NCBI GenBank assembly: GCA_947501685.1
Contig: CANMWQ010000001.1
Location: 372,001 to 436,000, forward strand
Direction: 5' to 3'
Length of the DNA stretch: 64,000 nucleotides
Source of the DNA: an uncultured Litoreibacter sp.
GTDB taxonomy: Bacteria > Pseudomonadota > Alphaproteobacteria > Rhodobacterales > Rhodobacteraceae
Shown here: positions 6,961-23,712 of the stretch, piece by piece
Numbering within the stretch: position 1 is the first letter of the stretch
How the letters are laid out: the number at the start of each line of letters is the position of its first letter
Made by a program: the position numbers and the translations under genes
The notes under the pieces: model-generated
Database searches by the model: none
Seen by the model: the letters and a program-made list of their open reading frames with translations, nothing else
Told to the model about the DNA's origin: nothing

Positions 6961-7055
6961 TGCATGGGTCTCCTTCTTCGCAACAAAAACACGTCACCAA
7001 GGCGATCCCGTTTGCACGCAGCCGCCCCCTTGAAACAGGGAAGGCCACGTCCACA

Positions 7056-7182
7056 CGCTCTCTCTCATCCGGACTATGACCGTCGGCTCAGGAATTACAC
7101 CTGATCTGCTGACACCCCTCATCTGAAAGGTCGCTCGCGGGCTATCACCGCCGGTGGGGAATTGCGCCCCGCCCTGAGAACG
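7056..7182 (-). promoter_or_regulatory. FMN riboswitch (RFN element) upstream of ribH
   Basis: On the minus strand the leader carries the conserved RFN blocks in order: TTCTCAGGGCGGGG, CCCCACCGGCGGT, then GTCAGCAGATC, GGTGTAATTCC, GAGCCGACGGT and CATAGTCCGGATG, closing with a GAGAGAG strand that pairs with the 5' end. This is the six-helix FMN aptamer. About 95 nt separate it from the ribH start codon. No U-rich terminator is visible, so control of translation start is more likely than attenuation (inference). Confidence 0.95.
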
Positions 7183-7265
7183 ACCCCATCTTTCCCCCAA
7201 ATCGCCGCTGGCGCAAGCACGCATCGAGACATACTCTGTTTCCAAAACGACAAGAGGCGCGCGGC

Positions 7266-8833: not shown

Positions 8834-8959
8834 GTAGCATTGGGCTCAAACCAGCCCTTCATATTAGCCAGCCCGGAGGCTGCAGCCCGTTAATCGGGCA
8901 GGGGAGCAGCATGGGAACTTTAAATTCCACTTCAACCCAACCTCACCCGTTAACAAAAT

Positions 8960-9088
8960 CCTAAAAATCCCGCCCAAAAGTTTTGGGACATTTTGGGTTA
9001 TCGCCCCAAATATTTTGCCCCATTTTGGGACAAAACGACCCTTTGCGTTGAAAAGAGCCGTTTTGACCGCAGCGTCCGGTGCCAGTCA
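8960..9088 (+). repeat. Dispersed element A, copy 1
   Basis: An intergenic sequence that recurs at 15373-15497 in the same orientation; 40 consecutive bases (9009-9048 and 15422-15461) are identical. It has a CCCAAAA-G-TTTTGGG palindrome and two TTTTGGGACA boxes (8981-8990 and 9023-9032) starting 42 nt apart. A third, more diverged copy lies at 23640-23712 on the other strand. Unlike the other two copies, this one has no gene on its strand immediately downstream. The remaining part of the 8834-9233 gap shows no credible gene. Confidence 0.85.
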
Positions 9089-9233
9089 CTCGCCACGCCA
9101 TCGGTTGAGCCGTGATGTCAGCATTCTTGCTGCTGTTCTGGCCGGTGATTGGGGCAAACTCGGCCCCTCGGGACGCTGAAGGTCTGGACGCGGTGGGTTT
9201 GATCAGCGCATGGCGAGAACACGCGACCCCTCA

Positions 9234-10445
9234 TCAAATGATCGCTTTTTCAACGATCTTGCGCCCCGCCGGGATGCGGTCAAAATGGAACGGCGTCATG
9301 TCCAGCGTTTGGTATGCGCGATGCACCATGATCTCGGCGGTGCCGCGCCCCATGGCGGGCGATTGTTGCAGCCCATGGCCAGAGAACCCATTGAGAAAGA
9401 AGAAATTCTCGACCTCCATATGCGGTCCCAAAATCGCGTTGTGATCAAAGGTGTTATAGGCGTAATGCCCTGCCCATTCGGATTGCACCTTGATCGCCTC
9501 AAATTGAGGGATGCGCGTCGCAAGGATCGGCCAGACATGGTCCTGCCAAATGTTGTGATCCATGATGAAGTCATCGGGATCGACGGCGGGGTCGATCTCG
9601 GAATGCCCGCCGCATTGGTAGGTGCCGCCGCCGTTTTCGCGCACATGGACCCCGGACGGGTCAATCGTCAGCGGCAGGTCACGGTCCAGCGGCTGCTCTG
9701 CCGAGAAAATCCACGAGAAACGTTTGCGCGGCTCAACCGGCACGTCGATGCCCGCCATCCGCGCGGTGTTGGCCGCGCGAGGCCCGGATGCGTTCAGAAC
9801 CTGGCCGCAGGCGATGACCTCGCCGGATGCCAGCGTCACGCTGTCGACACGGGTGCCAGCGGCGTTTTTGGCCACGGCGACCACTTCGTTTTCAATATAT
9901 TCAACGCCGCGTTCTCGGGCCGATTTGCGCCACCAGTCAAACACGGCTGTGGCGTCCCAGAACCCTTCGTCGATCAGGTTGATCGAGCCCAGAACAATGT
10001 CATCGACATGGTAGAACGGATAGGCCGCCTTGATCTGGTCGGGGGTCATCAATTGCGTTGCGGCACCCGCCGCAATCTGGACCTGCTGGCTTTCGCGCAG
10101 AACGTCCGCAAAGCCTTCATTGTCTGCCAGATACATGTAGCCAAAGGACCGGATCGAAAGCTCCGGCACCCGGTCATCATTGCCCAGATAGCGCGGCAGG
10201 TTCTTGACGAAATCCGCCGCGAACTGGCTGATGCGCACGTTCAATTCACCTGAGAACTGCTGACGCATGCAGGAATTCGTGTGCATCGTCGAGCTGTTCT
10301 CGTAGCTCAGATCGCGGTCCACGACCAAAACGCTGCCGTCAAAATCTGCGTCATCGGACAAGAACCACGCGGCAGAGGCGCCCATCATCGCGCCTCCAAT
10401 GATAACCACGTCATAGGATGTGCTTTTGGGGGTCTGGGTTTTCAT
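9234..10445 (-). CDS. FAD-dependent oxidoreductase, FOXRED1/DadA-sarcosine oxidase type
   Basis: A 403-residue DAO-fold flavoprotein. The Rossmann motif VVIIGGAMMGASAAWFL is at residues 13-29. The substrate domain includes NCMRQQFSG near residue 57, and the FAD-closing C-terminal segment NGFSGHGLQQSPAMG is near 360. It is most like FOXRED1 and the DadA/sarcosine-dimethylglycine oxidase group, which oxidise secondary or tertiary amines, often removing an N-methyl group. The start codon overlaps the stop of hydantoinase B by 4 nt (ATGA), so it is the last gene of a three-gene operon. Its substrate is probably the product of the hydantoinase pair (inference). Confidence 0.88.
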   Translation of the reverse strand: MKTQTPKSTSYDVVIIGGAMMGASAAWFLSDDADFDGSVLVVDRDLSYENSSTMHTNSCMRQQFSGELNVRISQFAADFVKNLPRYLGNDDRVPELSIRSFGYMYLADNEGFADVLRESQQVQIAAGAATQLMTPDQIKAAYPFYHVDDIVLGSINLIDEGFWDATAVFDWWRKSARERGVEYIENEVVAVAKNAAGTRVDSVTLASGEVIACGQVLNASGPRAANTARMAGIDVPVEPRKRFSWIFSAEQPLDRDLPLTIDPSGVHVRENGGGTYQCGGHSEIDPAVDPDDFIMDHNIWQDHVWPILATRIPQFEAIKVQSEWAGHYAYNTFDHNAILGPHMEVENFFFLNGFSGHGLQQSPAMGRGTAEIMVHRAYQTLDMTPFHFDRIPAGRKIVEKAII

Positions 10446-12151
10446 AGTGCCTCCCCCCGTGCGACGGCCGCTTCCACCTCTGCGATCTCTGCGGTGGACA
10501 GGTTGTAGGCCTTGGCGGCGGTCTCGGCCGAGATATACCCCCGCGCCAGATCCCGTTTCACCAGATCAACCGGCCGCTCGGACGGGTCGCCGTAGCCAGC
10601 CCCCCCCGGAAAGGCCATGACGACGCAGCGCCCATGCGCCACGAACTGCTTGCCTTTGCCATTCATCGCCGTGCCATCGTCCTGGACAATCGTGGTGGGC
10701 GCCCCTGCGCCACCGCCGCGCCTGCCGCGGGCGGGGTGATCAACGCGGTCAAACATGGCTTGGATGTCGAACTCGTGGCCCTCTTGAGCACCCACTTCCA
10801 TATATTGCCCAAGCCCCCCACGGGTCTTGCCAGCGCCGCCCGAGTCGGGCCGCAATTCTTTGCGCCAGATGATGACGGGGCCTGCATGTTCCGTGGCCTC
10901 AATCGGCATCGTCATCACGCCGGAGGGAAAGGCGGTGGCGTTCAACCCGTCATGCTCTGGCCGCGCGCCGGAGCCGCCCGAATTGAACGTCAAAACCTCG
11001 GAGCGCCGCGCATGCGCCGGGGCTGGCGCGTCCGTGCGGGGGCGCAGCGAAACCTGAAAATTGCACAAACAACCCGCGCCTTCGGCGGGCACCAGGCCGG
11101 GCACGATCTTGTCAAACGCGTTGAACACGGCGTCAGGCACGAAATGCCCCACGATATGGCGCAACGCGACCGGCGCGGGATGCAATGCGTTGACGATGGT
11201 GTTTTCCGGCGCAAAGATCTCGAACGGCGCAAGTGAGGCTGCATTATTCGGAATTTCCGGAGCAATCGCGACTTTCAGCGCGTAGCAGGCATAGGCTTTT
11301 GCATAGACCAGCGGGCAGTTGATGCCTTTTTTATCGAGCCCCGAAGACCCGGTGAAGTCCGACACAATCCTGTCGCCCTCAACGCTGACCTTCACCTTCA
11401 GCGTGATGGGGCGGTCAAACCCGTCCATCGTCATCTCGCCCGTTGCTGATTGCTGCGGCAAAGCCGCGATCCGCTCGATGGTTGCGCGGCGCGAATTGTC
11501 GAGGATGAACGCGGCGATGCCGTTCAGATCATCAAGGGCAAACTCCTCCATCATATCGACAAGGCGGCGGTGGCCGATCTCGTTGCAGGTGGCCAGCGCG
11601 TAGATATCGCCGATCAGCTGATCCGGCTCACGCACATTGCCCCGGATGATGCGGGTCAGGGTTTCGTCCACCGTGCCGCGATCCGTGAATTTCATGATCG
11701 GGATGTAGAGCCCTTCTTCATAGACGCTATGCGCATCGGCCCCGAACCCACGCCCGCCAATATCCACGATATGCGCGGTGCAGGCGAAAAAACCGACCAA
11801 CGCGCCGCGATGAAAGGAGGGGGTGACCATCGTGATGTCATGCAGATGACCGGTGCCCTCCCATGGGTCATTGGTGATATAGACGTCGCCGTCATGGATG
11901 TTGTCGCGGCCAATCCGGCGGATGAAATGTGCCACGGCATCTGCCATCGCGTTGACGTGCCCCGGCGTGCCGGTGACCGCTTGGGCCAGCATGCGGCCGT
12001 CCACGTCATACACGCCCGCCGACAAATCGCCCGCCTCGCGCACGGAGGTCGAAAACGCGGTGCGCACCAGCGCCTGCGCCTGCTCCTCCACAACCGAGAT
12101 CAGCCGGTTCCACATCACCTGATAGGCAACCTTTGAATGCTCTTGGGTCAT
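10442..12151 (-). CDS. hyuB: Hydantoinase B / oxoprolinase family subunit
   Basis: A 569-residue HyuB-family protein. Typical segments are AFSTSVREAGDLSAGVYDVDGRMLAQ, TPGHVNAM and NDPWEGTGHLHD in the first 120 residues, and GGGGAGAPTT with GGAGYGDP near the C-terminus. With HyuA it forms an ATP-dependent cyclic-amide hydrolase; characterised relatives open N-methylhydantoin or 5-oxoproline, and others are acetone/acetophenone carboxylases. The start at 12151 is chosen because its ATG overlaps the hyuA stop (ATGA); the ATG at 12184 lies inside hyuA. It is the middle gene of hyuA-hyuB-oxidase. Confidence 0.9.
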   Translation of the reverse strand: MTQEHSKVAYQVMWNRLISVVEEQAQALVRTAFSTSVREAGDLSAGVYDVDGRMLAQAVTGTPGHVNAMADAVAHFIRRIGRDNIHDGDVYITNDPWEGTGHLHDITMVTPSFHRGALVGFFACTAHIVDIGGRGFGADAHSVYEEGLYIPIMKFTDRGTVDETLTRIIRGNVREPDQLIGDIYALATCNEIGHRRLVDMMEEFALDDLNGIAAFILDNSRRATIERIAALPQQSATGEMTMDGFDRPITLKVKVSVEGDRIVSDFTGSSGLDKKGINCPLVYAKAYACYALKVAIAPEIPNNAASLAPFEIFAPENTIVNALHPAPVALRHIVGHFVPDAVFNAFDKIVPGLVPAEGAGCLCNFQVSLRPRTDAPAPAHARRSEVLTFNSGGSGARPEHDGLNATAFPSGVMTMPIEATEHAGPVIIWRKELRPDSGGAGKTRGGLGQYMEVGAQEGHEFDIQAMFDRVDHPARGRRGGGAGAPTTIVQDDGTAMNGKGKQFVAHGRCVVMAFPGGAGYGDPSERPVDLVKRDLARGYISAETAAKAYNLSTAEIAEVEAAVARGEAL

Positions 12152-14235
12152 TGCGCGGCCCCCTTTGTGATAACGTCGATGCACCCGTCGGGCTGGCGAA
12201 TTGCGTCTCGGCTGGCGGGCACGATGATGGTGGTTTCGTCTTCGACCACCGCCGCGGGTCCAATCGCCCTGTCGCCAGAGGCCATGTCAAAGCGATTGAC
12301 CACATCCGCGTCCAGAAACCTGCCCGCAGCCGCGTCAAACAAGCGCCGCGCGCCCGCGGAAGGTGCCGTCGCTGTGCCGGGCGTTTCTGCCATCCGTGCC
12401 ACGCTTTCTGGCGGGGTGGTCGCGTTGACGGACCAGACGGTGATCTCGATATCCATGCCCGCAACGGGGCGGCCAAAGAGCTTGGTGTAATCCTCAATGA
12501 ACCGCGCCTCAAACGTCGCAGCGTCTGGGGCCATCGCCTGGCCTTCGGTCAACTCAATCGGGATCTCCCAGCCCTGGCCGGTGTAGCGCATATACACTTT
12601 GAACTCCGACAGGATCGGGCTGACCTCGTCGCAGGTGCGCACAAACCCTGTGGCCTCCGCCTTGAGGTCAGACAGCAAGGATTTGATCCGCTCCCCGTCA
12701 AAATCCGACAGCTTCATATAGACGGACCTGTTGGCCTCGAAACTAAACGGCGCGCGCAGGAACCCGATGGCCGAGCCCACACCCGCCCCCGGCGGCACCA
12801 GCAATCGCGCGACGCCCAGCTTTTCGGCCAAACGGCCCGCATGCAGCGGCGCGGCCCCCCCAAACGCAATCATGGTGTAGTCTGACAGGTCTTCGCCGTT
12901 TTCAACCGCATGCACCCGCGCGGCGTTGGCCATGTTCTCGTCAACAACCTCCGCCACGCCAAACGCGGCCTCGACCGCCTCCATGTCAAGCGCCTCGCCC
13001 ACATGGCGCGACAGCGCCGCGCGCGACTGATCCGGGTGCAATTTGATCGAGCCGCCTGCAAAATTATCCGGGTCAAGCTTGCCCAAAACAAGGTCTGCAT
13101 CCGTCACGGCGGGCCGCGTGCCGTCACGCCCGTAACAGGCGGGGCCGGGCTCTGATCCCGCACTTTCCGGGCCGACACGGATCTGGCGCAGCGCATCCAC
13201 ATGCGCCAGCGACCCGCCGCCTGCGCCGATTTCAACCATGTCGATCACCGGGATCGAGATCGGCATGCCGGAGCCCTTCTTGAACCGGTAGGTCCGCGCC
13301 ACTTCGAACACGCGGCTGGTCTTCGGGGTCTGGTTCTTGATCAGACAAATCTTGGCGGTCGTGCCCCCCATGTCAAAGGACAAAACCTTGTCCAACCCGT
13401 AACGCGCCGCGATATGCGCCGCGAACACAGCGCCCCCGGCGGGGCCGGACTCGACCAGCCGCACGGGAAACTCTGCGGCGTTCTGAATCGAAATAATCCC
13501 GCCGCCCGAATGCATCAAAAAGATGCGGCAGGACACGCCTTCACCTTTCAGCCGGTCTTCAAGACGGCCCAGATAAGAGGCCATCAGTGGTTTGATATAG
13601 GCATTCGCGACGACGGTGTTGAAACGCTCATATTCGCGCATCTGCGGCGACACTTCGGACGAGATCGACACCGCAACATCGGGCAGCCTTTCGGCCAGAA
13701 CATCGCGCACCATCTGCTCATGCGTCGGGTTGAGATAGGAATGGATCAGGCCGACCGCGACGCTCTCGAAGCCAGCCGTCGCAATCCGGTCGACAACGGC
13801 CTCGACCTCCGCGCGGTCTATATCGACCAGGATCTGGCCATTCGCATCAACGCGGCCCGCAACGGTAAAACGCATCTGACGGGGCAAGAGCGGATCGGGC
13901 AGGTTGAGGTTCAGGTCATATTGCTCAAATCGCGACTCCGTCCGCATTTCGATCACATCGCGAAAGCCTTCGGTCGTGATCAGCGCGGTCTTGGCACCCC
14001 GCCGTTCTATCAGCGCATTCGTGGCCAGCGTGGTCCCATGAATGATCTGGCCAACCTGCGACGGGGTCACACCCGCTTTGGTGCAGACCTGATGCATGCC
14101 CTCAATGATCGCGTTTTCAGGGGCGGCATAGGTCGTGAGAACCTTCGTCGAAAACGGCACGCCATCTTTTTCCAGAACAACATCGGTAAAGGTGCCGCCG
14201 ATATCGACGCCGAGGCGAACGGAAGGTGCTGTCAT
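12148..14235 (-). CDS. hyuA: Hydantoinase A / oxoprolinase family subunit
   Basis: A 695-residue HyuA protein of the ASKHA-fold ATP-dependent hydrolases. It opens with GVDIGGTFTDVVLEKDG (phosphate loop), contains HGTTLATNALIERRG near residue 67, and has a second ATPase motif, SFDMGGTTAKICLI, near 290. The full length matches the family. Together with HyuB it should hydrolyse a five-membered cyclic amide using ATP, in the cytoplasm. The gene starts 87 nt after the end of a LysR regulator on the same strand. No N-carbamoyl-amino-acid amidase, expected for a complete hydantoin route, is nearby. Confidence 0.92.
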   Translation of the reverse strand: MTAPSVRLGVDIGGTFTDVVLEKDGVPFSTKVLTTYAAPENAIIEGMHQVCTKAGVTPSQVGQIIHGTTLATNALIERRGAKTALITTEGFRDVIEMRTESRFEQYDLNLNLPDPLLPRQMRFTVAGRVDANGQILVDIDRAEVEAVVDRIATAGFESVAVGLIHSYLNPTHEQMVRDVLAERLPDVAVSISSEVSPQMREYERFNTVVANAYIKPLMASYLGRLEDRLKGEGVSCRIFLMHSGGGIISIQNAAEFPVRLVESGPAGGAVFAAHIAARYGLDKVLSFDMGGTTAKICLIKNQTPKTSRVFEVARTYRFKKGSGMPISIPVIDMVEIGAGGGSLAHVDALRQIRVGPESAGSEPGPACYGRDGTRPAVTDADLVLGKLDPDNFAGGSIKLHPDQSRAALSRHVGEALDMEAVEAAFGVAEVVDENMANAARVHAVENGEDLSDYTMIAFGGAAPLHAGRLAEKLGVARLLVPPGAGVGSAIGFLRAPFSFEANRSVYMKLSDFDGERIKSLLSDLKAEATGFVRTCDEVSPILSEFKVYMRYTGQGWEIPIELTEGQAMAPDAATFEARFIEDYTKLFGRPVAGMDIEITVWSVNATTPPESVARMAETPGTATAPSAGARRLFDAAAGRFLDADVVNRFDMASGDRAIGPAAVVEDETTIIVPASRDAIRQPDGCIDVITKGAAQ

Positions 14236-14322
14236 CTTGGGCTCCTGCTCTGAAATGCAACGACAGGTGGCCTCAAAAGCCGCGAATAATCAAATCGATT
14301 AAAATGCTCACCCCAATCAATT

Positions 14323-15231
14323 TTATTGATCTAGGGGGAGGTGCATCGCCGTCTTCGCGATCTTGGCGGCTTTTTCCACGTAGAGCGCCGCCCGTGAGGG
14401 GGCGTAGCGCGCATAAAAGGACAGCGGGTCAGGCACCCAATCGGTTTCCACGCGGTGCAGCTCACCGGCCGCAATCTCGGCCGCCACCAGCCGTTCTGGC
14501 AACAACGCCACCCCGAGCCCCTCAAGCGCCATGGGCAGACATGCCGACAAAGCGCTGGAATGCACGATCCTTTCGCGCCTCAACCCGCGCGCCGATGCAA
14601 GGCTGTGCAAAGCAGCGCAGGCCTGCGTGTGTTTTGCATGGGTCAAGACCGTCAAATCAAACAGCTCCGCGAGGGGTGGGTTGGCGCTGATCCGTTTGAA
14701 CAGATCCGAGTTTGCAACCCAGCAGTAGTTCTCCTGACCCAACGCATGGCTTGCGAATGTCTTCGATTTGAACGGCCCGGTTTGAAGCGCCAGATCAAGC
14801 TGCCCCTCCATCAACCTTGCGTCGGTCGCGGTCGAAAGATCGACCTCCAGCTGGATCCGCAGCTTGGGGTAGGCCTCTCTCATCAATCGAAGGAAGCCCT
14901 GCAACCACGTGCAGGCCACAAGTTCCGTCACGCCCAGCCGCAAGGTTTCCTCGATCAATTCCTGACGGCCCGCCTCTTCAATCAGAGCCTCTCCTGCCCA
15001 CAAAACCTCACGGGTTTTCTTGAGTAACTTGTCGCCATCAGCCGTCAAACGCACAGACCCCGCATCGCGTGACAGCAAAGTGACGTTCAGCGCCGTTTCA
15101 AGCGCGGTGATGCGCGCGGAAATATTGGGCTGGGTCGTCCCAAGCGCCGAGGCCGCCGCCCGAAACGTGCCAGTGTCAACGACGAAGGCAAACGCCTCCA
15201 GCTGCTTGAGGGTGATCCGGCTTTTGATCAT
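14323..15231 (-). CDS. LysR-family transcriptional regulator
   Basis: A 302-residue LysR-type regulator. The N-terminal winged helix-turn-helix spans about residues 5-65 (TLKQLEAFAFVVDTGTFRAAASALGTTQPNISARITALE), followed by a two-lobed effector-binding domain of normal length. It is divergent from the mttB gene, with 298 nt between start codons, and lies upstream of and in line with hyuA. It is therefore the obvious candidate regulator of both arms, with the effector likely to be the substrate of the cluster (inference). Dispersed element A copy 2 lies in the shared control region. Confidence 0.93.
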   Translation of the reverse strand: MIKSRITLKQLEAFAFVVDTGTFRAAASALGTTQPNISARITALETALNVTLLSRDAGSVRLTADGDKLLKKTREVLWAGEALIEEAGRQELIEETLRLGVTELVACTWLQGFLRLMREAYPKLRIQLEVDLSTATDARLMEGQLDLALQTGPFKSKTFASHALGQENYCWVANSDLFKRISANPPLAELFDLTVLTHAKHTQACAALHSLASARGLRRERIVHSSALSACLPMALEGLGVALLPERLVAAEIAAGELHRVETDWVPDPLSFYARYAPSRAALYVEKAAKIAKTAMHLPLDQ

Positions 15232-15372
15232 GTTCGGCTCTTTGATAGAAAAACGTGATGCTCACAATATCCGCTTCAAGCCTCCGCGCAAACCTGTTCC
15301 GAAGACCTGAGACCTCCGACCCCGGCAGCAACCATGCCCCGTCACGCGCCGCGGCGCTATCTATGAACAGAA

Positions 15373-15497
15373 CCTTAAAAAACCAGCCCAAAAGTTTTGG
15401 GACATTTGGGTTTTCGCGCCGAATATTTTGCCCCATTTTGGGACAAAACGACCCTTTGCGTCGGAAAAAGCCGTTTTGCGCAGGGCAACCGGTGGCA
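15373..15497 (+). repeat. Dispersed element A, copy 2, upstream of mttB
   Basis: It is nearly the same as copy 1 at 8960-9088, with the CCCAAAA-G-TTTTGGG palindrome and TTTTGGGACA boxes at 15395-15404 and 15436-15445 (41 nt start to start). It ends about 33 nt before the mttB start codon, inside the divergent LysR/mttB control region, so it may hold promoter or operator sequences. Confidence 0.85.
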
Positions 15498-15529
15498 CGC
15501 TGATCCCTAAGCTGAACGAAGGATACCCC

Positions 15530-17086
15530 ATGGCAAACGACGCCCCCCGCAGAACCCGCAGCGGCGGCCGCAAAGGCAATGCAAGACGCACCACATCGCT
15601 GTTGCCGCCGCAAATGCCATGGTCCCCTCCGATCAACCGCGACCGCCCCACAGAGCCCTTGGGCGAGGCCGGTGTCGAGGCCATTCACAAGGGCTGCATG
15701 CGCATTCTGAGCGAGATCGGGATCGAGTTTCTGAACCCCGAAGCCTGCGAGGTTCTGCGCAAAGCGGGCTGCAAAGTGGACGGCACAAACGTCAGGATGG
15801 ATGAAGATTTCGTAATGGAAATGGTGGGTTACGCCCCATCGGAGTTCACCATCACCCCCCGCAACCCCGACCGTGCCATCACCATGGGCGGCAAGCATAT
15901 GCTCTTTGGCAACGTGTCGTCTCCGCCCAATTCATGGACGCTGGAACGCGGCAAGGAATCCGGCAGCTTCGAGATGTATAAGGACTTCATCAAGCTCACC
16001 CAGTTCTTCAACTGCATCCATTTCGCCGGCGGCTACCCGGTCGAGCCCATCGACATCCACGCAGGCGTCCGCCACCTCGATTGCCTGTTCGAAAAACTCA
16101 CCCTCACCGACAAGGCCGTCCACGCCTATTCGCTGGGCCGGGGCAGGGTAGAAGACGTCATGGAAATGACCCGCATCGCCGCTGGGATTTCCCGCGAAGA
16201 GTTTGATTCTAAACCATATATGTACACCAACATCAATTCGGTCTCGCCGCTGAAACATGACTTCCCGATGCTCGAAGGCGCCATGATCCACGCCCGCCGC
16301 AACCAGCCGGTGATCGTCACGCCCTTCACGCTTGCAGGGGCGATGGCCCCCGTCACCATGTCGGGCGCAGTGACGCTTTCCTTGGCCGAAGGTTTGGCCG
16401 CTATCGCCTTGTTACAATGCGTAAATCCCGGCGCACCCTGCGCCATCGGCACCTTCACCTCCAATGTCGACATGAAGACCGGAGCGCCCGCATTCGGCAC
16501 GCCTGAATACATGCGCGCAACCCAGATGACGGGCCAAATGGGCCGCTACTACGGGTTGCCAATCAGATCCTCCGGCGTTTGCGCGGCAAATGTCCCCGAC
16601 GGCCAAGCCATGTGGGAGACGTCAAACTCCCTCTGGGCCGCTGTGCAATCGGGCACAAACGTGGTCTATCACGCGGCCGGTTGGCTGGAAGGCGGGCTGA
16701 TTGCAAGCCCCGAGAAATTCATCATGGATTGCGATGTTCTTCAACAAATTCAACGCTATATGGAACCTGCCACCTACGCCACCACCCCCGATGACATCGC
16801 CGTGGAAGCCATCAAAGAGGTCGGGCCCGATGGCCATTATTTCGGCTGCCAACACACGCAAGAACGCTACGAGACCGCCTTCTACAGCCCGCTCATCTCC
16901 GACTGGTCCAACTTCGAAGCATGGGAGCTGAACGGAGGCACATGGACCGCCGAGCGCGCCCACAAAATGTACAAGGGCATCATGGCGGAGTTCGAAGCGC
17001 CCCCCATGGACCCGGCCATCCGCGAAGAGCTGTCAGACTTCGTCGCCCGCCGCAAAGCTGAGGGCGGTGTGGAAACCGATTTCTAA
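15530..17086 (+). CDS. MttB-superfamily (non-pyrrolysine) methyltransferase
   Basis: A 518-residue protein of the trimethylamine-methyltransferase superfamily (PF06253), recognised by GCMRILSEIGIEFLNPEA near residue 60, PFTLAGAMAPVTMSGAV near 265 and GTFTSNVDMKTGAPAFG near 310. The frame is open throughout, with no in-frame amber codon, so it belongs to the non-pyrrolysine group, whose known members demethylate glycine betaine, proline betaine, carnitine or gamma-butyrobetaine onto a corrinoid protein. No corrinoid protein or reactivase gene is in the window. The start at 15530 has GAAGGA 7-8 nt upstream; a longer frame from 15428 begins inside repeat A. DUF1684 follows 26 nt downstream. Confidence 0.9.
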   Translation: MANDAPRRTRSGGRKGNARRTTSLLPPQMPWSPPINRDRPTEPLGEAGVEAIHKGCMRILSEIGIEFLNPEACEVLRKAGCKVDGTNVRMDEDFVMEMVGYAPSEFTITPRNPDRAITMGGKHMLFGNVSSPPNSWTLERGKESGSFEMYKDFIKLTQFFNCIHFAGGYPVEPIDIHAGVRHLDCLFEKLTLTDKAVHAYSLGRGRVEDVMEMTRIAAGISREEFDSKPYMYTNINSVSPLKHDFPMLEGAMIHARRNQPVIVTPFTLAGAMAPVTMSGAVTLSLAEGLAAIALLQCVNPGAPCAIGTFTSNVDMKTGAPAFGTPEYMRATQMTGQMGRYYGLPIRSSGVCAANVPDGQAMWETSNSLWAAVQSGTNVVYHAAGWLEGGLIASPEKFIMDCDVLQQIQRYMEPATYATTPDDIAVEAIKEVGPDGHYFGCQHTQERYETAFYSPLISDWSNFEAWELNGGTWTAERAHKMYKGIMAEFEAPPMDPAIREELSDFVARRKAEGGVETDF

Positions 17087-17112
17087 CGGTCAGAGCTTTC
17101 GTGTAGAGTGCA

Positions 17113-17751
17113 ATGACGATGAAAGAAACCGATATATATCAAGGGCCTGAGCCCTACGCGCTGGCCGATTGGCGGCGGCGTCTCAATGATCTCTATGCCC
17201 AAATCCGCGCGACGTCTGACCCCCAAAAGGGCTGGGACATGTGGCGTGCAGAGCGCTCAAATCTCTACCGCACCCACCCGATGTCCCCGGTTCCAAAGCC
17301 GCGCCGCACCACGCTCAAACAGATCGCGATGTTCGACTATAACCCGGCCCTGCGCTTTTATGTCTCGCTCGACCGGGTAACGGCCAATGCTCTCACCTTC
17401 CAACTCGACGCCGACGGCGACATGCGGGCCCGCCCAATCGCCCGCACACAGGGGCTGAAAGCCGCCTTAAAGGCCGAGCTAACCGTCTATTGGATCGAAG
17501 GCTATGGCGGCGGATTGTTTATCCCGTTCAAAGACTTAACCTCCGGTGCGCAAACCTATGGTGGGGGTCGCTACCTCGTCGACGCCATCAAGGGCGCAGA
17601 CCTTGGCCTCACCGACACCGGCGCGCTGATCCTTGATTTCAATTTCGCCTATACCCCGTCCTGCGCGTGGGCGCCCGACTTCGTCTGCCCGCTGTCACCG
17701 CCAGAAAACACCCTGCCAACAGCCATTGAGGCTGGCGAGAAAACGCCCTGA
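17113..17751 (+). CDS. DUF1684 domain protein
   Basis: A 212-residue protein with the DUF1684 signature: WRAERSNLYRTHPMSPVP, FIPFKDLTSGAQTYGGGRYLVDAIKG and ILDFNFAYTPSCAWAPDFVCPLSPPEN. The family is cytoplasmic and its role is unknown. The conserved FxPF-D-T-G-TYGGGRYLD core suggests a small-molecule-binding or catalytic site. The gene follows mttB by 26 nt on the same strand, so the two are probably one transcript. An ATG at 17119 is an alternative start. Confidence 0.87.
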   Translation: MTMKETDIYQGPEPYALADWRRRLNDLYAQIRATSDPQKGWDMWRAERSNLYRTHPMSPVPKPRRTTLKQIAMFDYNPALRFYVSLDRVTANALTFQLDADGDMRARPIARTQGLKAALKAELTVYWIEGYGGGLFIPFKDLTSGAQTYGGGRYLVDAIKGADLGLTDTGALILDFNFAYTPSCAWAPDFVCPLSPPENTLPTAIEAGEKTP

Positions 17752-17773
17752 GGGCGCCGTCCCAAGGTCCGTC

Positions 17774-20011
17774 TCAGACGAAATCAATATGCTTGTTGAA
17801 CGGCATCTCGCGGATACGCTGACCCGTCGCGGCAAAGATCGCGTTGGCCAAAGCGGGCGGGCCCGCTGGCACCGGAGGCTCCCCGATCCCGCGAATTTTA
17901 TCAGCGTTTTCAAGGCCTTTGACGATGATCTCTGGCGTCTGATACATCCGCATGCCTTCCGCGTCGTAGTAATTGATCTGCTCCGCCATGCCGTCCGAAT
18001 AGGTGATCTCCGAGTTGATCGCATGCCCCAACGCCCAGATCACGCCGCCTTGCACCAGATTTTCAAAGTTCACCGGATCAATGACACGGCCCACATCTGC
18101 GGCCACATAGACCCGGTCGATCTTGATGCCTGCATCGGTGTTGGTGACCTCAACCACCTCCGCCACCGGCACCCCGAAACTTTCCACCAACGCCACGCCG
18201 CGCCCTTGGTTCGCGCCCATCGCGCTGCCCCAGTTTGACATTTCTGCCGCTGCTTCCAACACCTTACGGTGCACGGCGTTGTTGCACAGCCGCAAGCGCT
18301 CCTCCATTTGGTCTGCCCCTGCGGCATGGATCAACTCGTCCAACGCGCTTTCCGCAAAGAACCCGGCGGTCGAGGCCCCCACGGAACGCCAGGAGCTTGT
18401 CGGCGCCAATTCCGGCACCGCATAGGCCCGTACGCGCAGGTTTGGGATGCCGTAAGCCATCGCCCAAGCGCCCGCCGCAATTTGCGTGTCAGGCCCCGGC
18501 ACAGGCACGCCCAACCGCCCCGATTGCGACCGTGCCGCGGAGACCGTGGCGATGTCCAAACTCCAGCTTTCGACCTTGCCGTCTTTGACCATGCCCCTTG
18601 AGCGGCTCATGCCAATCTGGCGCGGGTAATCGGTCACGAAATCTTCTTCGCGCGACAAGGTCAGCTTGACCGGAGTGCCCCGCATCTGCACGGCGATCTC
18701 GGTGGCCAGCGTGATGTTGTCGAACTCCAACCGATGGCCAAAGCTGCCGCCGGAATATTGGTTGTGATAGATCACATTCTCCGCCGCGCAGCCCACGATG
18801 GCGGCAACTTTCTGTTGCAAAAATCGCGGCAATTGGTGGCCCGCCCAAACCTCCGCGCCGTCTTCATCCGCGCGCACGATCGCGCCCAAAGGCTCCAACG
18901 GCTGGTGCGCCACATAGCCCGCGCGGTATTCGACCTCGATCACCTCCGCGCCGTCCAGCGCGGACTCCACATCCCCGTCGGCGCGCCATTCCTTGTCGAG
19001 ACGTTCCTCGGTAAAGCTGGCCGCAACCTCTTCCCAATGCCCGTCTTGTTCCGCAGGGTAGGGGGCCGGGGCCCAATCAAATTCGATCTGGTTGGCAGCA
19101 TTCATCGCCCGCCATGTGCTATTGGCAATCACCGCCACGCCATTGGTCACCGGCACAATCGCGGAGACGCCCGGCATCGTATCGGCGCCATTGGCCTCAT
19201 AGCCATTCATCGGCGCACGGCGCGGGTTCACACGCGTGGAGGCATAGACCATCCCGTCGACGTTCAGGTCGATCCCGTAGCTTTGCGTGCCGGTGGATTT
19301 CGCCGGAATATCCTTGCGTGCCATAGGCTTGCCAATCAGCCGCCATGTGCTTGGATCGCGCAGAGTGATATCGGACACAGGCTCCAGCCCGGAGGCCGCC
19401 TCCGCCAAATCGACATAGGCCAGCGACGTCCCATCCGGCAGTTGCACCGCGCCATTGGCCGTCTTCAACGCATCCACGGCCACGCCTGTTTGTTGGGAGG
19501 CCGCCAGTTTCAACGTCTCCCGCGCCACGGCGCCAGCAGTGCGCAGCTTTTCATATTGATCAGGCACGGAGCTTGACCCGCCGGTCCCCATAATGCCCAT
19601 CAGCTTGGCCACGCCGCCCATGACCGAGCGCATGGTCTCCGCGCCAAAGCCCTCGTCAAAAGCCGCAAATGGCACGGCCTCCGCCGCCAGAGCGGTGTTC
19701 CAATAGGCCGGATCAGGCGCGCCGAAATCCGTCTCGAACTGGCCGAACTCCACGTCCAGCTCCTCCGCGATGAGCGCCGCCTGCATATGCACCACGCCCT
19801 GACCAATATCGGCATGCGGGGTGATCAGGGTGATGGCCTCAGGCGTAATTTTGACAAACGGGTTGAACGTGGCCTCACCCGTTCCGAGGCTCGAGGCCAG
19901 CGGGTTTTGATGCGGGGTTTTGACCTTGTAGATCCCGAAGGCGACGCCCCCGGCAATGGCGGCGGAACCGATCAGAAAGGTGCGGCGTGCAATTGTTTTG
20001 GCGCGTCCCAT
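17774..20011 (-). CDS. Molybdenum hydroxylase large subunit, isoquinoline 1-oxidoreductase beta type
   Basis: A 745-residue xanthine-dehydrogenase-family molybdopterin subunit. The N-terminus carries a twin-arginine signal (ARRTFLIGSAAIAGGVAFGI, residues 8-27), so it is exported folded to the periplasm with its small partner, as in IorB and related aldehyde dehydrogenases. Molybdopterin-binding features include GHQLPRFLQQKV and SGGSFGHRLEFDN in the middle, and GIGEPPVPAGPPALANAIFAA with the catalytic Glu near the C-terminus. Physiological substrates of these enzymes are aldehydes or N-heterocycles. The [2Fe-2S] subunit gene is 3 nt upstream; the usual cytochrome c electron acceptor gene is absent. 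Confidence 0.9.
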   Translation of the reverse strand: MGRAKTIARRTFLIGSAAIAGGVAFGIYKVKTPHQNPLASSLGTGEATFNPFVKITPEAITLITPHADIGQGVVHMQAALIAEELDVEFGQFETDFGAPDPAYWNTALAAEAVPFAAFDEGFGAETMRSVMGGVAKLMGIMGTGGSSSVPDQYEKLRTAGAVARETLKLAASQQTGVAVDALKTANGAVQLPDGTSLAYVDLAEAASGLEPVSDITLRDPSTWRLIGKPMARKDIPAKSTGTQSYGIDLNVDGMVYASTRVNPRRAPMNGYEANGADTMPGVSAIVPVTNGVAVIANSTWRAMNAANQIEFDWAPAPYPAEQDGHWEEVAASFTEERLDKEWRADGDVESALDGAEVIEVEYRAGYVAHQPLEPLGAIVRADEDGAEVWAGHQLPRFLQQKVAAIVGCAAENVIYHNQYSGGSFGHRLEFDNITLATEIAVQMRGTPVKLTLSREEDFVTDYPRQIGMSRSRGMVKDGKVESWSLDIATVSAARSQSGRLGVPVPGPDTQIAAGAWAMAYGIPNLRVRAYAVPELAPTSSWRSVGASTAGFFAESALDELIHAAGADQMEERLRLCNNAVHRKVLEAAAEMSNWGSAMGANQGRGVALVESFGVPVAEVVEVTNTDAGIKIDRVYVAADVGRVIDPVNFENLVQGGVIWALGHAINSEITYSDGMAEQINYYDAEGMRMYQTPEIIVKGLENADKIRGIGEPPVPAGPPALANAIFAATGQRIREMPFNKHIDFV

Positions 20012-20014
20012 GGT

Positions 20015-20476
20015 TCAGGCCCCTTTGATCTTGGCGGCGGCATCGTGGATGGCGGCGCGGATGCGTGGATATGTTCCGCAGCGGCACAGATTGCCCGACA
20101 TGACCTCGTCAATATCGTCATCGGTGGGGCTGTCATTCTCGTTCAACAACGCGGTCGCCTGCATCACCTGACCGGACTGGCAATAGCCGCATTGGGCGAC
20201 CTGATGGTCGATCCAAGCCTGCTGAACCACCGAGAGCTTCTCCGGAGTGCCCACACCTTCAATCGTGGTCACCTCCGCGCCCTCCAGATCGCCAATTTGC
20301 AGCTGACAAGACCGCTGCGCCTCGCCATCCACATGCACCGTGCACGCCCCACATTGCGCAACGCCGCAGCCGTATTTCGTGCCGGTCAGCCCAATCTCGT
20401 CACGCAAAACCCAAAGGAGCGGCGTGTCGGGTTCAATGTCGATCTCATGTGATGTGCCGTTGATGGTCAGCTGCAT
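20015..20476 (-). CDS. [2Fe-2S]-binding subunit of the molybdenum hydroxylase
   Basis: A 153-residue small subunit (IorA/CoxS type). The plant-ferredoxin-like N-terminal cluster is bound by Cys in [20 protein letters not shown] and a Cys about 20 residues on. The second cluster uses CGYCQSGQ and [12 protein letters not shown]. It passes electrons from the molybdenum site. The start at 20476 ([10 protein letters not shown]) has GGAG about 9 nt before it; the ATG at 20524 adds 16 unrelated residues. It forms a two-gene operon with the large subunit. A perfect 12-bp palindrome lies about 60 nt upstream. Confidence 0.92.
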
Positions 20477-20534
20477 TGGGGTGGCTCCTGCATGTGGATT
20501 TTGGCATTCAGGTAGTCTGGGCAACGGGATAAAT

Positions 20535-20546
20535 GAACACGTGTTC
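20535..20546. promoter_or_regulatory. Perfect palindrome GAACACGTGTTC, candidate operator
   Basis: GAACACGTGTTC is a perfect 12-bp inverted repeat about 58 nt upstream of the [2Fe-2S] subunit start. Size and place suit a dimeric repressor such as a TetR- or LacI-type protein controlling the molybdenum hydroxylase operon. No regulator gene is adjacent. Confidence 0.45.
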
Positions 20547-20676
20547 GGCGTCAGGGCCGCACTTTAAACTCTCTACGATGCTATCAATATAGGATGCACG
20601 AGTTTGATTGCCATGGACTTCTCCGGCACGCCAATGAACGGATAAGCGCGAAATGTTTTGCTGGGTCTAGAGTGCG

Positions 20677-21597
20677 CTAAGATGCGCCACGCTTTGCAGC
20701 CTCTCTCAGAGCATCACTCACCGCGCGCCGTTCCTCGATGGACGCGGAGAGGGTCGATTGAAGGCAACATCCGATTGTATCGGGACCGATTTCTCCAATC
20801 ACGTCGGGCACTTCGCTGGTCAAATCTGCCGGGCCCTCCAAGGTCCGTAGGATCATCTGCTTTTCGTTATTCAAATAATGTTCGACCTTAGGCTCGTGAA
20901 TGAACTCGTAGTAGAGCCCATAGAGATGGTATTCAGACAACATCTTCATGCGTATTAGGTTGTGGCGCCAATCTCCCTCATGCAGCTTTTCAATCTGCGC
21001 CTTCAAGGCCTCAATTACCCCCTGGTGCCAAACGACCGGCCAACCTACATAATGTACGTCTTTCGGGATCTCGCCGGTCAGAGCCAGCATCCGTGCGCAT
21101 TCTTCGACCCAGACTTGGTGGTCGTCATATTTGGTGTCGAAGGTTTCACGAAAAAGACGTGCCCGGCCTTTGGTCACGAAATCCCCGACCTTGAGGTCGC
21201 GGATCAGGACTGTGTCGCTGTCCAGATGCACCACCACAGAATGACCAAGCGTACGGGAGGCTTCGAACTTAACAATCTGTTGCATCACCCACCCGTTGAC
21301 CCGCAGGTTTGGGCGAACCCAATACTGATCCCGGACCAGAACGCCGAGTTTCTTACGCCAGCTCCGAGGCGGCAGGGGGATGCGGTGGACTCCTGAGGGA
21401 AGGAAATCTTCCATGCTGATAATCCGACGCTTCTCGCCGGTGAACTCGCGGAACAAGTGAAGTTCATGCTTGGGAACGGCCGCCACATGTACGAAATCCG
21501 GAGCATGCCGATCAATTGACTCGCATAGCAGCCGGAAGTACTCGCGATCTCCGGAAAAAGTGCAGGTAAACAACGCGATGTCAGGGGTCTTAGTCAT
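20677..21597 (-). CDS. Glycosyltransferase-like protein (DUF6492-like)
   Basis: A 306-residue protein with an N-terminal alpha/beta part (DIALFTCTFSGDREYFRLLCESIDRHAP) and a DSD triad in VVVHLDSDTVLIRDL near residue 125. That resembles the DxD metal/nucleotide-sugar site of GT-A glycosyltransferases. The best family match I recall is DUF6492, found as single genes in Rhodobacterales; a role in cell-surface glycan building is inference. The start at 21597 (MTKTPDIALF) is preferred over the ATG at 21711. GC is somewhat below the flanking genes. It lies next to the tRNA-Glu gene with no operon partner. Confidence 0.6.
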   Translation of the reverse strand: MTKTPDIALFTCTFSGDREYFRLLCESIDRHAPDFVHVAAVPKHELHLFREFTGEKRRIISMEDFLPSGVHRIPLPPRSWRKKLGVLVRDQYWVRPNLRVNGWVMQQIVKFEASRTLGHSVVVHLDSDTVLIRDLKVGDFVTKGRARLFRETFDTKYDDHQVWVEECARMLALTGEIPKDVHYVGWPVVWHQGVIEALKAQIEKLHEGDWRHNLIRMKMLSEYHLYGLYYEFIHEPKVEHYLNNEKQMILRTLEGPADLTSEVPDVIGEIGPDTIGCCLQSTLSASIEERRAVSDALREAAKRGAS

Positions 21598-21750
21598 GAA
21601 GGCTTCACCGAATGTGGGGTCGAAAGGAGGCACCGGGCCATGAGTTAAAATGCAAGAGGTAGCCCAGTGGCGTGCAAAGCCTTCTATAAGGCCGACAACC
21701 ATGCAAAACAATGGGTTGAGGCGGATGTCTGTATGTAGGGGGTATACCGC

Positions 21751-21825
21751 TGGTACTCCCTAGGGGAATCGAACCCCTCTTTCCAGGTTGAAAACCTGGC
21801 GTCCTAACCGATAGACGAAGGGAGC
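21751..21825 (-). tRNA. tRNA-Glu (anticodon TTC)
   Basis: The minus strand folds into a full cloverleaf. The acceptor GCTCCCT pairs with AGGGAGT. The anticodon stem CCAGG/CCTGG encloses the loop TTTTCAA (anticodon TTC). The T arm GAGGGGTTCGATTCCCCT contains the GTTCGAT loop. The discriminator A is followed by an encoded CCA at the 3' end. Confidence 0.96.
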
Positions 21826-21897
21826 ATCAGCAGTGAGAGGCTATTTAGGCGAGCGGGCCCCCTCTGACAAGTCGAAAACTGCGAAATTTTGTAATTT

Positions 21898-23646
21898 TTA
21901 GCCTCCGGCAGGTGCCGCGTCTTCGAGGCGCAGTTGCACCGATTGTCGGCCTTGCCATGTGTTTATTTCGACGCGTCCGGCGAGGTGAAATCTGGCACCT
22001 TTATGCTGTGTAAGTGCTTGCATTAACCCGCTTTCTGCGGCGTTGAAGCAGATGGCGTCGATCTTAGGGCCTATGCCGTCGGAGAAGCTGAGTTTCAGGT
22101 GGCCCTGGCCGACCTCCTTGGTGAATCCGATCTGTTGGTCGGGGAAGGCAAATCGCGGGGCGGCGGCTCCGGCACCGAAGGGCCCGGCTTTTTCCAGTTG
22201 CTCAACGAGCGGCACATTGGCGGCACTTGCCATCATCACCCCGTCAAGCTTCAGATCGCGTGGCCCCAGCGCGCCTGCGCCCTGTTTTTCCATCATTTCG
22301 GAGAGGCGCTCCATCGCGGCCTCCAGCTTGTCTTCGGCCACGGTCAGCCCCGCCGCCATCTTGTGACCACCGCCTTTGATCAACAGACCCTCAGCGGCAA
22401 GTCTTTGAATTTGAACACCTAAGTCAATGCCGCTGACTGACCGGGCGGAGCCTTTTCCGATGCCATCCTCAACGCCGATGACCACGGCGGGGCGGTTGGT
22501 GGCCTCCTTCAAACGAGACGCCACGATGCCCACGACGCCGGGGTGCCAGCCTTGGCCTGCGGCCCAGACGAGGGGGGTGTCGAAGCCGCGGGATTCGGCT
22601 TGGGCGAGGGCGGCGATGCGGACCTGTTCTTCGATTTCGCGGCGCTCAGTGTTCAGTGCGTCGAGGCGTTCTGACAGGGCCTCGGCCTCGGAATTATCCA
22701 ATGTAGACAACAGCCTAGCGCCCAGATCGGGCGTGCCGACGCGGCCTCCGGCGTTGATGCGCGGGCCAAGAAGGAAGCCCAGATGATAGGAGGTGGGCGC
22801 GGTGTCCATGCGGGAGATGTCGGCTAAGGCTTTGATCCCAATGCGGTTTCTTTGCCCCATGACCTTGAGGCCTTGGACCACCAAGGCGCGGTTTACCCCT
22901 ATAAGCGGAGCTACATCGGCGACGGTGCCAAGGGCCACAAGATCGAGCAGCGCGATCAGGTCGGGGCCGGATTTCCCGTTATTTTTCAATAGCCTGTTCA
23001 AAGCCACAAGCGTCAGAAACACCACGCCGGCGGCGCAAAGATGGGCGAGATCTCCGCTCTCGTCCTGCCTGTTTGGGTTCACAACGGCCAAAGCTGGCGG
23101 CAGGGTTTCGCCGCCAAGGTGATGATCTAAAACGATAATATCGGCAGCAGAACCTGCGGCAAGGGCGTCATGGCTGAGCGTGCCGCAATCGACGCAGATG
23201 ATCAGGTCATGGTCGCGGGCCAGGGCCTCCATGGCAGGTTCATTGGGGCCGTAACCTTCGTCAATGCGGTCAGGAATATAGAGGGTCGCCGCGACACCCA
23301 TGTCGCGCAGCCAGTTGATCAGCAGCGCGGCGGAGGTTGCGCCGTCCACGTCGTAATCTGCAAAAATTGCTATCTTTTCAGAGGCTTGCGCCGCGCGTAA
23401 AATCCGCTCGGCGGCCAAATCCATGTCGCGCAAGACTGACGGATCGGGCAAAAGCTCTTTCAAAGTCGGGGTCAGATACCGCTCCGCATGCTCGGGTGCG
23501 ACGCCCAGACGGGAGAGCGTTTGGCAGATGGGGCGGGGCAGGGTGGTCTGTTGTGACATGGCTTCGGCCATGCGGTCTTGCTCGGGCGACAGCCCAACCC
23601 AGCGACGCCCCGTCAGGGAGGCCTCAATATTCAAAAAAGCGCTCAT
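21898..23646 (-). CDS. recJ: Single-stranded-DNA-specific exonuclease RecJ
   Basis: A 582-residue DHH-family 5'-3' single-strand exonuclease of recombination and mismatch repair. The catalytic DHH motifs are visible: FADYDVDGATSAALL near residue 98, ICVDCGT and IIVLDHHLGG near 150-175, and the DHHA1 motif KGGGHKMAAGLTV near 423. Full length for the family. The start codon at 23646 lies at the edge of dispersed element A copy 3, so the leader of this message is almost entirely that element. It is in line with glpX upstream, 73 nt away. Confidence 0.95.
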   Translation of the reverse strand: MSAFLNIEASLTGRRWVGLSPEQDRMAEAMSQQTTLPRPICQTLSRLGVAPEHAERYLTPTLKELLPDPSVLRDMDLAAERILRAAQASEKIAIFADYDVDGATSAALLINWLRDMGVAATLYIPDRIDEGYGPNEPAMEALARDHDLIICVDCGTLSHDALAAGSAADIIVLDHHLGGETLPPALAVVNPNRQDESGDLAHLCAAGVVFLTLVALNRLLKNNGKSGPDLIALLDLVALGTVADVAPLIGVNRALVVQGLKVMGQRNRIGIKALADISRMDTAPTSYHLGFLLGPRINAGGRVGTPDLGARLLSTLDNSEAEALSERLDALNTERREIEEQVRIAALAQAESRGFDTPLVWAAGQGWHPGVVGIVASRLKEATNRPAVVIGVEDGIGKGSARSVSGIDLGVQIQRLAAEGLLIKGGGHKMAAGLTVAEDKLEAAMERLSEMMEKQGAGALGPRDLKLDGVMMASAANVPLVEQLEKAGPFGAGAAAPRFAFPDQQIGFTKEVGQGHLKLSFSDGIGPKIDAICFNAAESGLMQALTQHKGARFHLAGRVEINTWQGRQSVQLRLEDAAPAGG

Positions 23647-23712
23647 TTGTACAAAATGGGGTAATTCAAAAGGGGCGAAAACCCATTTTGTACAAAAGTT
23701 TTGAGCTCTCTG
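23640..23712 (-). repeat. Dispersed element A, copy 3, at the recJ start
   Basis: Read on the minus strand this aligns with copies 1 and 2: a CAAAA-C-TTTTG palindrome, TTTTGTACAA boxes (23688-23697 and 23647-23656; 41 nt start to start), and a TGGGTTTTCGCCCC core. It also forms a perfect 15-bp inverted repeat, TTTGTACAAAATGGG at 23646-23660 against 23682-23696, which would fold over the recJ start codon. Confidence 0.75.

What the first reader, a model, noticed from the sequence alone, without database searches (positions are those of the whole stretch)
8960..23712. Dispersed intergenic element with paired TTTTGnnACA boxes at fixed 41-42 nt spacing
Three intergenic copies (8960-9088, 15373-15497, and 23640-23712 on the minus strand) share a CAAAA-n-TTTTG palindrome and two TTTTGnnACA boxes (TTTTGGGACA in copies 1 and 2, TTTTGTACAA in copy 3). 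The boxes start 42, 41 and 41 nt apart, about four helical turns. Copies 1 and 2 have a 40-base identical run. Copy 3 is diverged outside the boxes yet keeps their spacing, which suggests selection for protein binding on one DNA face. Copies 2 and 3 sit just before gene starts (mttB, recJ). This could be the binding site of an unnamed global regulator or a mobile non-coding element.
Basis: seen in the sequence. Interest (0 to 1): 0.75.

Follow-up and report, generated by a model that had tools for sequence, protein, structure and literature searches.

The report
Dispersed palindromic repeat overwritten between species
A marine bacterium carries about forty scattered copies of a short mirror-image DNA element that sit at the same places in related species but have often been rewritten as whole blocks, which looks like a mobile repeat family kept uniform by copying and is not obviously a gene switch.

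Summary
The three window copies belong to a family of 53-55-bp quasi-palindromes with 16-17-bp arms and a centre of about 20 nt. Box starts are 41 or 42 nt apart as the box type predicts in 104 of 107 scored copies from seven genomes. The own genome has about 41 loci, a close relative about 36 (merged by eye). The family occurs in 9 of 21 Litoreibacter genomes, two only marginally, and in none of 196 sampled family genomes of other genera.

Copies lie beside unrelated core genes in all gene contexts; three lie inside open genes. Twenty-four sites are shared with the relative, yet at 10 the box type differs. In a carboxyltransferase gene the element is 57% identical between the two species, the rest of the gene 87%, and a paralogous copy matches it at 93%.

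I read it as a REP/MITE-like element inherited at fixed sites and overwritten by copying between sites. No Y1 (RAYT-type) transposase was found in 21 genus genomes. A global-regulator site is not supported; a protein binding the paired boxes is not excluded.

The parts
8978..9038 (+). Copy 1 (GGGAC/GGGAC type); boxes at 8981-8990 and 9023-9032
   Evidence: near-duplicate of copy 2
8950..8968 (+). TTAA-type flank of copy 1 (TTAAC ... CTAAAAAT), on the side where many copies carry TTAA
   Evidence: TTAA within 40 bp upstream in 64 of 109 copies against 12.3 after shuffling
15392..15451 (+). Copy 2 (GGGAC/GGGAC type), upstream of mttB; boxes at 15395-15404 and 15436-15445
   Evidence: the corresponding G018 site carries GTAC/GTAC boxes with near flanks alike on both sides
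15375..15384 (+). TTAA-type flank of copy 2
23641..23701 (-). Copy 3 (GTAC/GTAC type) between glpX and recJ; boxes start at 23697 and 23656 on the minus strand
   Evidence: site filled in G000, G018, G017, G020 and G006; without the element in the 8 further genomes readable
9066..15369 (.). Segment (approximate ends) flanked by copies 1 and 2 in direct orientation, without a match in the corresponding 36-kb stretch of G018; carries DAO oxidoreductase, HyuB, HyuA and LysR genes

Best explanation
The three window copies belong to a lineage-specific family of miniature palindromic elements: 53-55 bp of quasi-palindrome, in part of the family with a TTAA-containing flank that is copied with it. 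It works like a REP, RPE or MITE. Shown: it is dispersed, restricted to part of one genus, sits at sites shared between species, and at three examined places sister species lack it. Shown: at shared sites whole elements differ as blocks between species, so orthologous copies can differ more than paralogous copies do. Inferred: insertion in an ancestor of the carriers, survival mainly at gene boundaries and in tolerant protein segments, and later replacement by ectopic gene conversion or targeted re-insertion between copies. Inferred: the fixed 41/42-nt spacing reflects recognition by a dimeric or tetrameric trans-acting protein (transposase, recombinase or host DNA-binding protein), or the need to keep the palindrome intact. 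No mobilising enzyme was identified.
For: Genome-wide excess of the box: 44 against 3. About 41 loci in G000 plus two partial matches, 36 in G018 plus one partial, merged by eye (lower bounds: 150 of about 700 candidates were scored). Restriction: 9 of 21 genus genomes with model R1, of which G016 and G007 have one weak match each; with model R2 G016 has two and G007 none. None of 196 family genomes of other genera. A strict GTAC-type pattern over GTDB hit 38 stretches, all titled Litoreibacter; none in viral contigs and no match of two copies in plasmids. Sites without the element in sister species: glpX-recJ and cysS-HMGL. In-gene insertion: a carboxyltransferase linker is expanded in carriers. 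Replacement: orthologous elements 0.766 identical, 60-bp flanks 0.747, paralogues 0.711 and 0.780 (24 pairs); 10 of 24 sites have another box type in G000; best G000 paralogue beats orthologue in 19 of 24 (a best-of-38 comparison, which favours paralogues); 32 of 56 identical inside and 1368 of 1573 outside at the carboxyltransferase site. TTAACnAAATA at the edge in 6 of 39 G000 copies and 0 of 33 G018 copies. Location resembles REPs, mainly unidirectional and convergent (PMC3733652 section 15).
Against: No Y1/RAYT transposase in 21 genus genomes; no transposase family among the flanking proteins scanned. Target-site duplications could not be defined. 15 of 39 G000 and 9 of 33 G018 scored copies were not paired, but I did not establish that any is a new insertion, so current mobility is unproven. 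Near-invariant box spacing with a variable centre suggests a functional constraint. Elements follow the direction of flanking genes in 21 of 25 co-directional G018 cases, 19 of 22 without the in-gene copies (adjusted by hand), which a purely selfish element need not do.
Confidence: 0.6

Rival explanations
1. A chromosome-wide binding site for a nucleoid-organising or occlusion-type protein (working like SlmA or Noc sites, recalled), held on one DNA face by the 41/42-nt spacing; box types are lineage dialects of that protein.
For: Spacing 41/42 in 104 of 107; boxes kept even where arms no longer pair, as in window copies 1 and 2, which fold no better than shuffles (z about 0); more even spacing than random on both large G018 contigs (P 0.004 and 0.0013); no regulon coherence.
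Against: Evenness is mixed elsewhere: G000 C1-C3 P 0.68, 0.08, 0.21 and C4 0.009; G017 0.36, 0.027, 0.35; G006 0.72. Whole elements including centre and near flank change as blocks, which point selection on a binding site does not predict. No match in 12 of 21 genus genomes. No protein identified.
Confidence: 0.2
2. An RNA hairpin in mRNA that affects transcript ends or stability, as proposed for REPs.
For: Long hairpins with z -4.1 to -5.3 in copy 3, L012, L094 and L100 (4 of 6 folded); arms pair in 88.7% of cells against 81.2% in shuffles, with 63 doubly changed cells against 30.1; orientation follows genes 21 to 4 in G018.
Against: Two other measures show no excess: pairs with double changes 6 against 6.5, further pair types 10 against 10.6. 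Within single genomes pairing was not clearly above shuffles (G018, G017, G020, G005 rows, some rows mis-anchored). Copies 1 and 2 have no such hairpin; 11 of 39 G000 copies have non-complementary box types (counted); 4 of 36 G018 copies are between divergent genes and 3 inside genes; no T-tract follows the stem in the copies I looked at.
Confidence: 0.12
3. Operator of a global transcription regulator, possibly with a CtrA-like box in the flank.
For: TTAA within 40 bp upstream in 64 of 109 copies, clustered near -31, -20 and -12, against 12.3 after shuffling and 16 of 109 downstream; copies 2 and 3 precede genes.
Against: Relaxed YTAM-N7-YTAM in only 9 of 33 G018 and 6 of 39 G000 copies; 7 of 36 G018 copies between convergent genes; neighbours unrelated; no such flank at the recJ, serA and carboxyltransferase sites.
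Confidence: 0.06

Closest known systems
CGTC- and GTAG-tagged REPs, including RPE-4/RPE-6 of Rickettsia conorii (PMC3733652: abstract, passages, sections 6 and 15 read)
   Same: Short palindromes in many copies, mostly between unidirectional or convergent genes, some inside genes; CGTC type lacks a dedicated transposase.
   Different: Stem 16-17 bp and centre about 20 nt here against 8-9-bp stems and 4-5-nt loops for CGTC REPs; GTAG in 0 of 109 copies and CGTC not clearly enriched (15 of 109 downstream against 9.1); block differences at shared sites.
MITEs of prokaryotes (PMC10969869, four passages read)
   Same: Small, inverted-repeat ends, intergenic and in-frame insertions.
   Different: No related full-length IS or cognate transposase found; target-site duplication not established.
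Long Rickettsia palindromic elements (about 150 bp; from passages of PMC10969869 and PMC3733652)
   Same: Palindromes inserted in frame in protein genes.
   Different: About a third of the length; only 3 in-gene sites among 36 G018 copies; sequence relation not tested.
Neisserial DNA-uptake-sequence dialects (recalled, not tested)
   Same: Lineage dialects of a short motif, often as inverted pairs at gene ends.
   Different: About 40 sites per genome here, far fewer than recalled for uptake sequences.

Membership tests
REP / REPtron | GTAG or CGTC tag at one end of the palindrome | tested here: not met
   GTAG 0 of 109 on either side; CGTC 15 of 109 downstream against 9.1 shuffled and 4 upstream against 3.0
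REP / REPtron | RAYT (Y1) transposase in the genome (for GTAG REPs) | tested here: not met
   PF01797: 0 of 21 genus genomes; the same search rings in 5 of 14 control genomes
REP / REPtron | Multi-copy, mainly intergenic, unidirectional or convergent | tested here: met
   G018 36 copies: 25 unidirectional, 7 convergent, 4 divergent; three of the 25 are in fact inside genes
RPE | In-frame insertion in protein genes | tested here: met
   Carboxyltransferase linker compared with non-carriers; TilS-like and LeuRS genes stay open but were not compared with non-carriers
MITE | Terminal inverted repeats | tested here: met
   Arms pair in 88.7% of cells over 50 copies; broken in copies 1 and 2 of the window
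MITE | Target-site duplication | tested here: inconclusive
   Sites without the element at glpX-recJ and cysS-HMGL too diverged to define ends
MITE | Cognate transposase or parental IS | tested here: inconclusive
   No transposase family among 64 of 72 flanking G018 proteins scanned; whole genomes were not read
CtrA-regulated promoter | TTAA-N7-TTAAC box (consensus recalled) | tested here: inconclusive
   Relaxed YTAM-N7-YTAM upstream in 9 of 33 G018 and 6 of 39 G000 copies, downstream in 1 of 33 and 1 of 39: enriched but a minority
Rfam RNA families | Match at gathering score | tested here: not met
   12 sources searched; four matches, an FMN riboswitch and three tRNAs, none at the elements
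Nucleoid-occlusion or organisation site | Bound by a dedicated host protein; distribution tied to chromosome geometry | tested here: inconclusive
   Even spacing on both G018 contigs, G000 C4 and G017 C2; not on G000 C1-C3, G017 C1 and C3 or G006; binding not testable

The most novel reading that the evidence does not exclude
An unidentified trans-acting protein recognises two boxes on one DNA face 41/42 bp apart and actively rewrites or re-targets the roughly 40 sites, so that each lineage carries its own dialect of the same chromosomal addresses, even where this changes a protein's sequence. This would be a self-homogenising address system lacking the RAYT enzyme and end tags of known REPs.
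Probability: 0.18. Interest if true: 0.8.

Novelty: new variant of a known kind. Interest (0 to 1): 0.52.

Why it matters
It gives a natural record of short repeats being replaced as blocks at fixed chromosomal sites in bacteria, including inside a coding gene, with closely related genomes available to test how it happens. If a dedicated protein is behind it, it would be a new kind of palindrome-handling enzyme or DNA-organising factor in Roseobacteraceae.

Tried and rejected
Chance was rejected. The literal TTTTGnnACA pattern with gap 20-45 found only four places in the own genome, two of them with starts 32 nt apart; those are inner-box combinations of full copies, so the pattern was replaced by alignment models R1 and R2.

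A composite transposon between copies 1 and 2 was considered; the enclosed genes are an oxidoreductase, two hydantoinase subunits and a LysR regulator, so the pair is better read as a duplication around an acquired segment.

RAYT/REPtron was rejected for lack of the enzyme and tags. Rfam gave nothing at the elements. Full-text searches for the box letters gave 64 papers (20 listed) and 5 papers; the listed titles concern other organisms or topics. Searches for Litoreibacter with palindromes (3 papers), for intergenic or concerted palindromic repeats with Rhodobacter (2), for REPs with gene conversion and concerted evolution (0), for Roseobacter-related dispersed inverted repeats (57, 10 listed) and for Litoreibacter with repetitive intergenic DNA (0) showed no description of this family in the listings; papers outside that library were not searched, and only PMC3733652 and PMC10969869 were opened.

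A first arm-pairing script used an anchor that fails for GGGAC-type copies, so its G000, G006 and G019 rows were discarded; one search replaced it. An indel comparison of centre and flanks was inconclusive because the aligner placed compensating gaps. Even chromosomal spacing was not general; the G018 and G017 lists included partial matches, the G000 lists left two partial matches out. Searches use 109 copies above a score cut; weaker and partial copies were left out. The flank control shuffles single bases of 40-bp flanks.
Full report
Observation. The two-box pattern is in the window where stated and is not chance. Copy 3 uses a shorter box, TTTTGTACAA. Genome-wide, TTTTGGGACA occurs 44 times against 3 for the reversed control. 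Reading 25 stretches around these outside the window showed that 16 hold a longer quasi-palindrome or inverted-repeat cluster and 9 hold an isolated box without a second arm.

Anatomy. Forty further copies were read. The oriented consensus in the closest relative G018 is roughly GAG-TTTTGTACAAAATGGGTTTTGGCCC-N12-ACCCCATTTTGTACAAAA-CTC. The second type, common in the own genome G000, is roughly TTTTGGGACATTTTGGGGAATGGCCCAAAATATTTTGTCCCAAAATGTCCCAAAA, with box variants GTCCC and GCCCC. Box starts are 41 nt apart in 73 of 75 GTAC copies and 42 nt apart in 31 of 32 others; 2 of 109 copies were not scored. On 50 aligned copies the arms pair in 88.7% of cells, against 81.2% in shuffles and 34-54% when slid, and 63 cells are doubly changed against 30.1; but the number of pairs with double changes (6 against 6.5) and of pair types (10 against 10.6) shows no excess. 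Pairing is not universal: window copies 1 and 2 carry both boxes in the same direction and fold no better than shuffles, whereas copy 3 and three other tested copies fold with z -4.1 to -5.3.

Flank. TTAA lies within 40 bp on the left in 64 of 109 copies (12.3 expected after shuffling, maximum 23 in 500) and within 40 bp on the right in 16 of 109. It clusters near -31, -20 and -12. It resembles a CtrA box (recalled), but the relaxed full motif is in a minority. In G000 6 of 39 copies share TTAACnAAATA at the edge and 0 of 33 G018 copies do. Paralogous similarity runs into this flank in several hits. I infer that the flank is copied with the palindrome in part of the family.

Distribution. Model R1 gives 76 matches in G000, 69 in G018, 67 in G017, 36 in the incomplete G019, 23 in G006, 15 in G020, 14 in G005 and 1 each in G016 and G007; 12 of 21 genus genomes have none. 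Model R2 gives G017 65, G006 20, G020 17, G016 2 and G007 0, so G016 and G007 are marginal. Palindromes score on both strands; merged by eye, one search gives about 41 loci in G000 plus two partial ones and 36 in G018 plus one partial. R2 matches only G000 among 198 family genomes in 197 genera; one of the 197 non-matching genomes is of the same genus (stricter filters). A strict GTAC-type pattern scanned over GTDB species hits 38 stretches from four genome records, all titled Litoreibacter; the own genome may be left out of that scan. Two patterns in viral contigs gave none, and two copies gave no match in plasmids.

Context. In G018, 36 copies lie 21 forward and 4 reverse between co-directional genes, 7 between convergent and 4 between divergent genes, by my own gene finder. 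The forward excess has a two-sided binomial P of about 0.001, worked out by hand. Three of these copies (two counted forward, one reverse) are inside genes. In other genomes forward and reverse are 17 and 5 (G000), 5 and 3 (G017), 5 and 4 (G006), 4 and 1 (G020); sites are shared, so these are not independent. Of 72 flanking G018 proteins 64 were scanned; families include polyphosphate kinase and Ppx, ribosomal L15, 2-hydroxyacid dehydrogenases, a cysteinyl-tRNA-synthetase-type protein, RecO, glyceraldehyde-3-phosphate dehydrogenase, an aconitase-family pair, cobalamin enzymes and a cold-shock protein, with no common theme and no transposase.

Insertion and inheritance. At glpX-recJ the element is present in G000, G018, G017, G020 and G006. 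In the 8 other genomes whose junction is readable (G001, G002, G003, G004, G007, G010, G014, G015) there is no element and the genes overlap or are at most a few tens of bases apart; 9 rows of that call were mis-anchored and ignored. At the cysS-HMGL site the genes abut in G005, G008 and G009, G004 has an unrelated spacer, and G018, G000, G017 and G020 carry a spacer with flank plus element (the other rows were not readable at this anchor). In a carboxyltransferase gene the carriers G018, G000, G017, G020 and G005 have an expanded linker encoded by the element, with possibly degenerate forms in G006 and G016 and shorter, different linkers in the other 12 genomes aligned. Two more in-gene copies, in a TilS-like PP-loop gene and in leucyl-tRNA synthetase, keep the frame open but were not compared with non-carriers.

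Replacement at shared sites. With both flanks required to match, 24 sites are shared by G000 and G018 (39 and 33 scored copies). The elements there are 0.766 identical, about the same as the 60-bp flanks (0.747) and paralogues (0.711 in G000, 0.780 in G018); non-orthologous copies across the two genomes are 0.681 identical, so orthology still counts for something. At 10 of 24 sites G000 has a non-GTAC box where G018 has GTAC/GTAC, 12 are GTAC in both and 2 G000 copies were not classified. The mttB copy of the window is a further switched site: its flanks match G018 but its boxes do not. The best paralogue beats the orthologue in 19 of 24, a comparison that favours paralogues because it takes the best of 38. 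The clearest case is the carboxyltransferase gene: 32 of 56 identical inside the element, 1368 of 1573 outside, while the same G000 copy is 0.93 identical to a paralogue at another site. Copying of a whole element explains this better than point mutation. GGGAC-type copies occur in G000, G006 and G019 and not among the G018, G017, G020 or G005 copies read (one G018 copy unclassified), so the direction and number of switches remain open; flank identities place G018, G000 and G019 close together.

Mechanism. I favour a miniature palindromic mobile family that now changes mainly by overwriting its own sites. Steps shown: dispersal, lineage restriction, absence at examined sites in sister species, shared sites, block differences. 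Steps inferred: that the differences arose by ectopic conversion or re-insertion, and that a protein reads the two boxes at fixed spacing. The element fails the REP tag and RAYT tests (definitions from PMC3733652, abstract, passages and sections 6 and 15). MITE membership is open because neither a target duplication nor an enzyme was found.

Against. Strict spacing and the orientation bias speak for a functional constraint, and current mobility is unproven. Even spacing in G018 (P 0.004 and 0.0013), G000 C4 (0.009) and G017 C2 (0.027) would suit a chromosome-organising site but is not seen on G000 C1-C3, G017 C1 and C3 or G006.

Noticed in passing
window 7053-7185 (-): FMN riboswitch (113.7 bits) upstream of a lumazine synthase gene at 6523-6960 (-).
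   Followed up: no
window 21754-21825 (-): tRNA gene (Rfam) between two minus-strand genes.
   Followed up: no
window 9066-15369: Segment with DAO oxidoreductase, hydantoinase B and A and LysR genes, bounded by direct near-duplicates of the element and its flank, not at this place in G018; suggests acquisition or duplication around element copy 2.
   Followed up: partly
L024 2029-2163: Two complete copies of different type (GTAC and GTCCC) side by side in the own genome; L028, L202 and L208 also hold extra boxes or rearranged halves.
   Followed up: partly
L216 1512-1558 and L201 1502-1548: Element-like sequence inside leucyl-tRNA synthetase with identical residues in both species, encoding VQFVQNLEGLNPFCTG.
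   Followed up: partly
G017 contig C1 625-988 kb: About 360 kb without any listed copy although the rest of the contig has one about every 75 kb.
   Followed up: no
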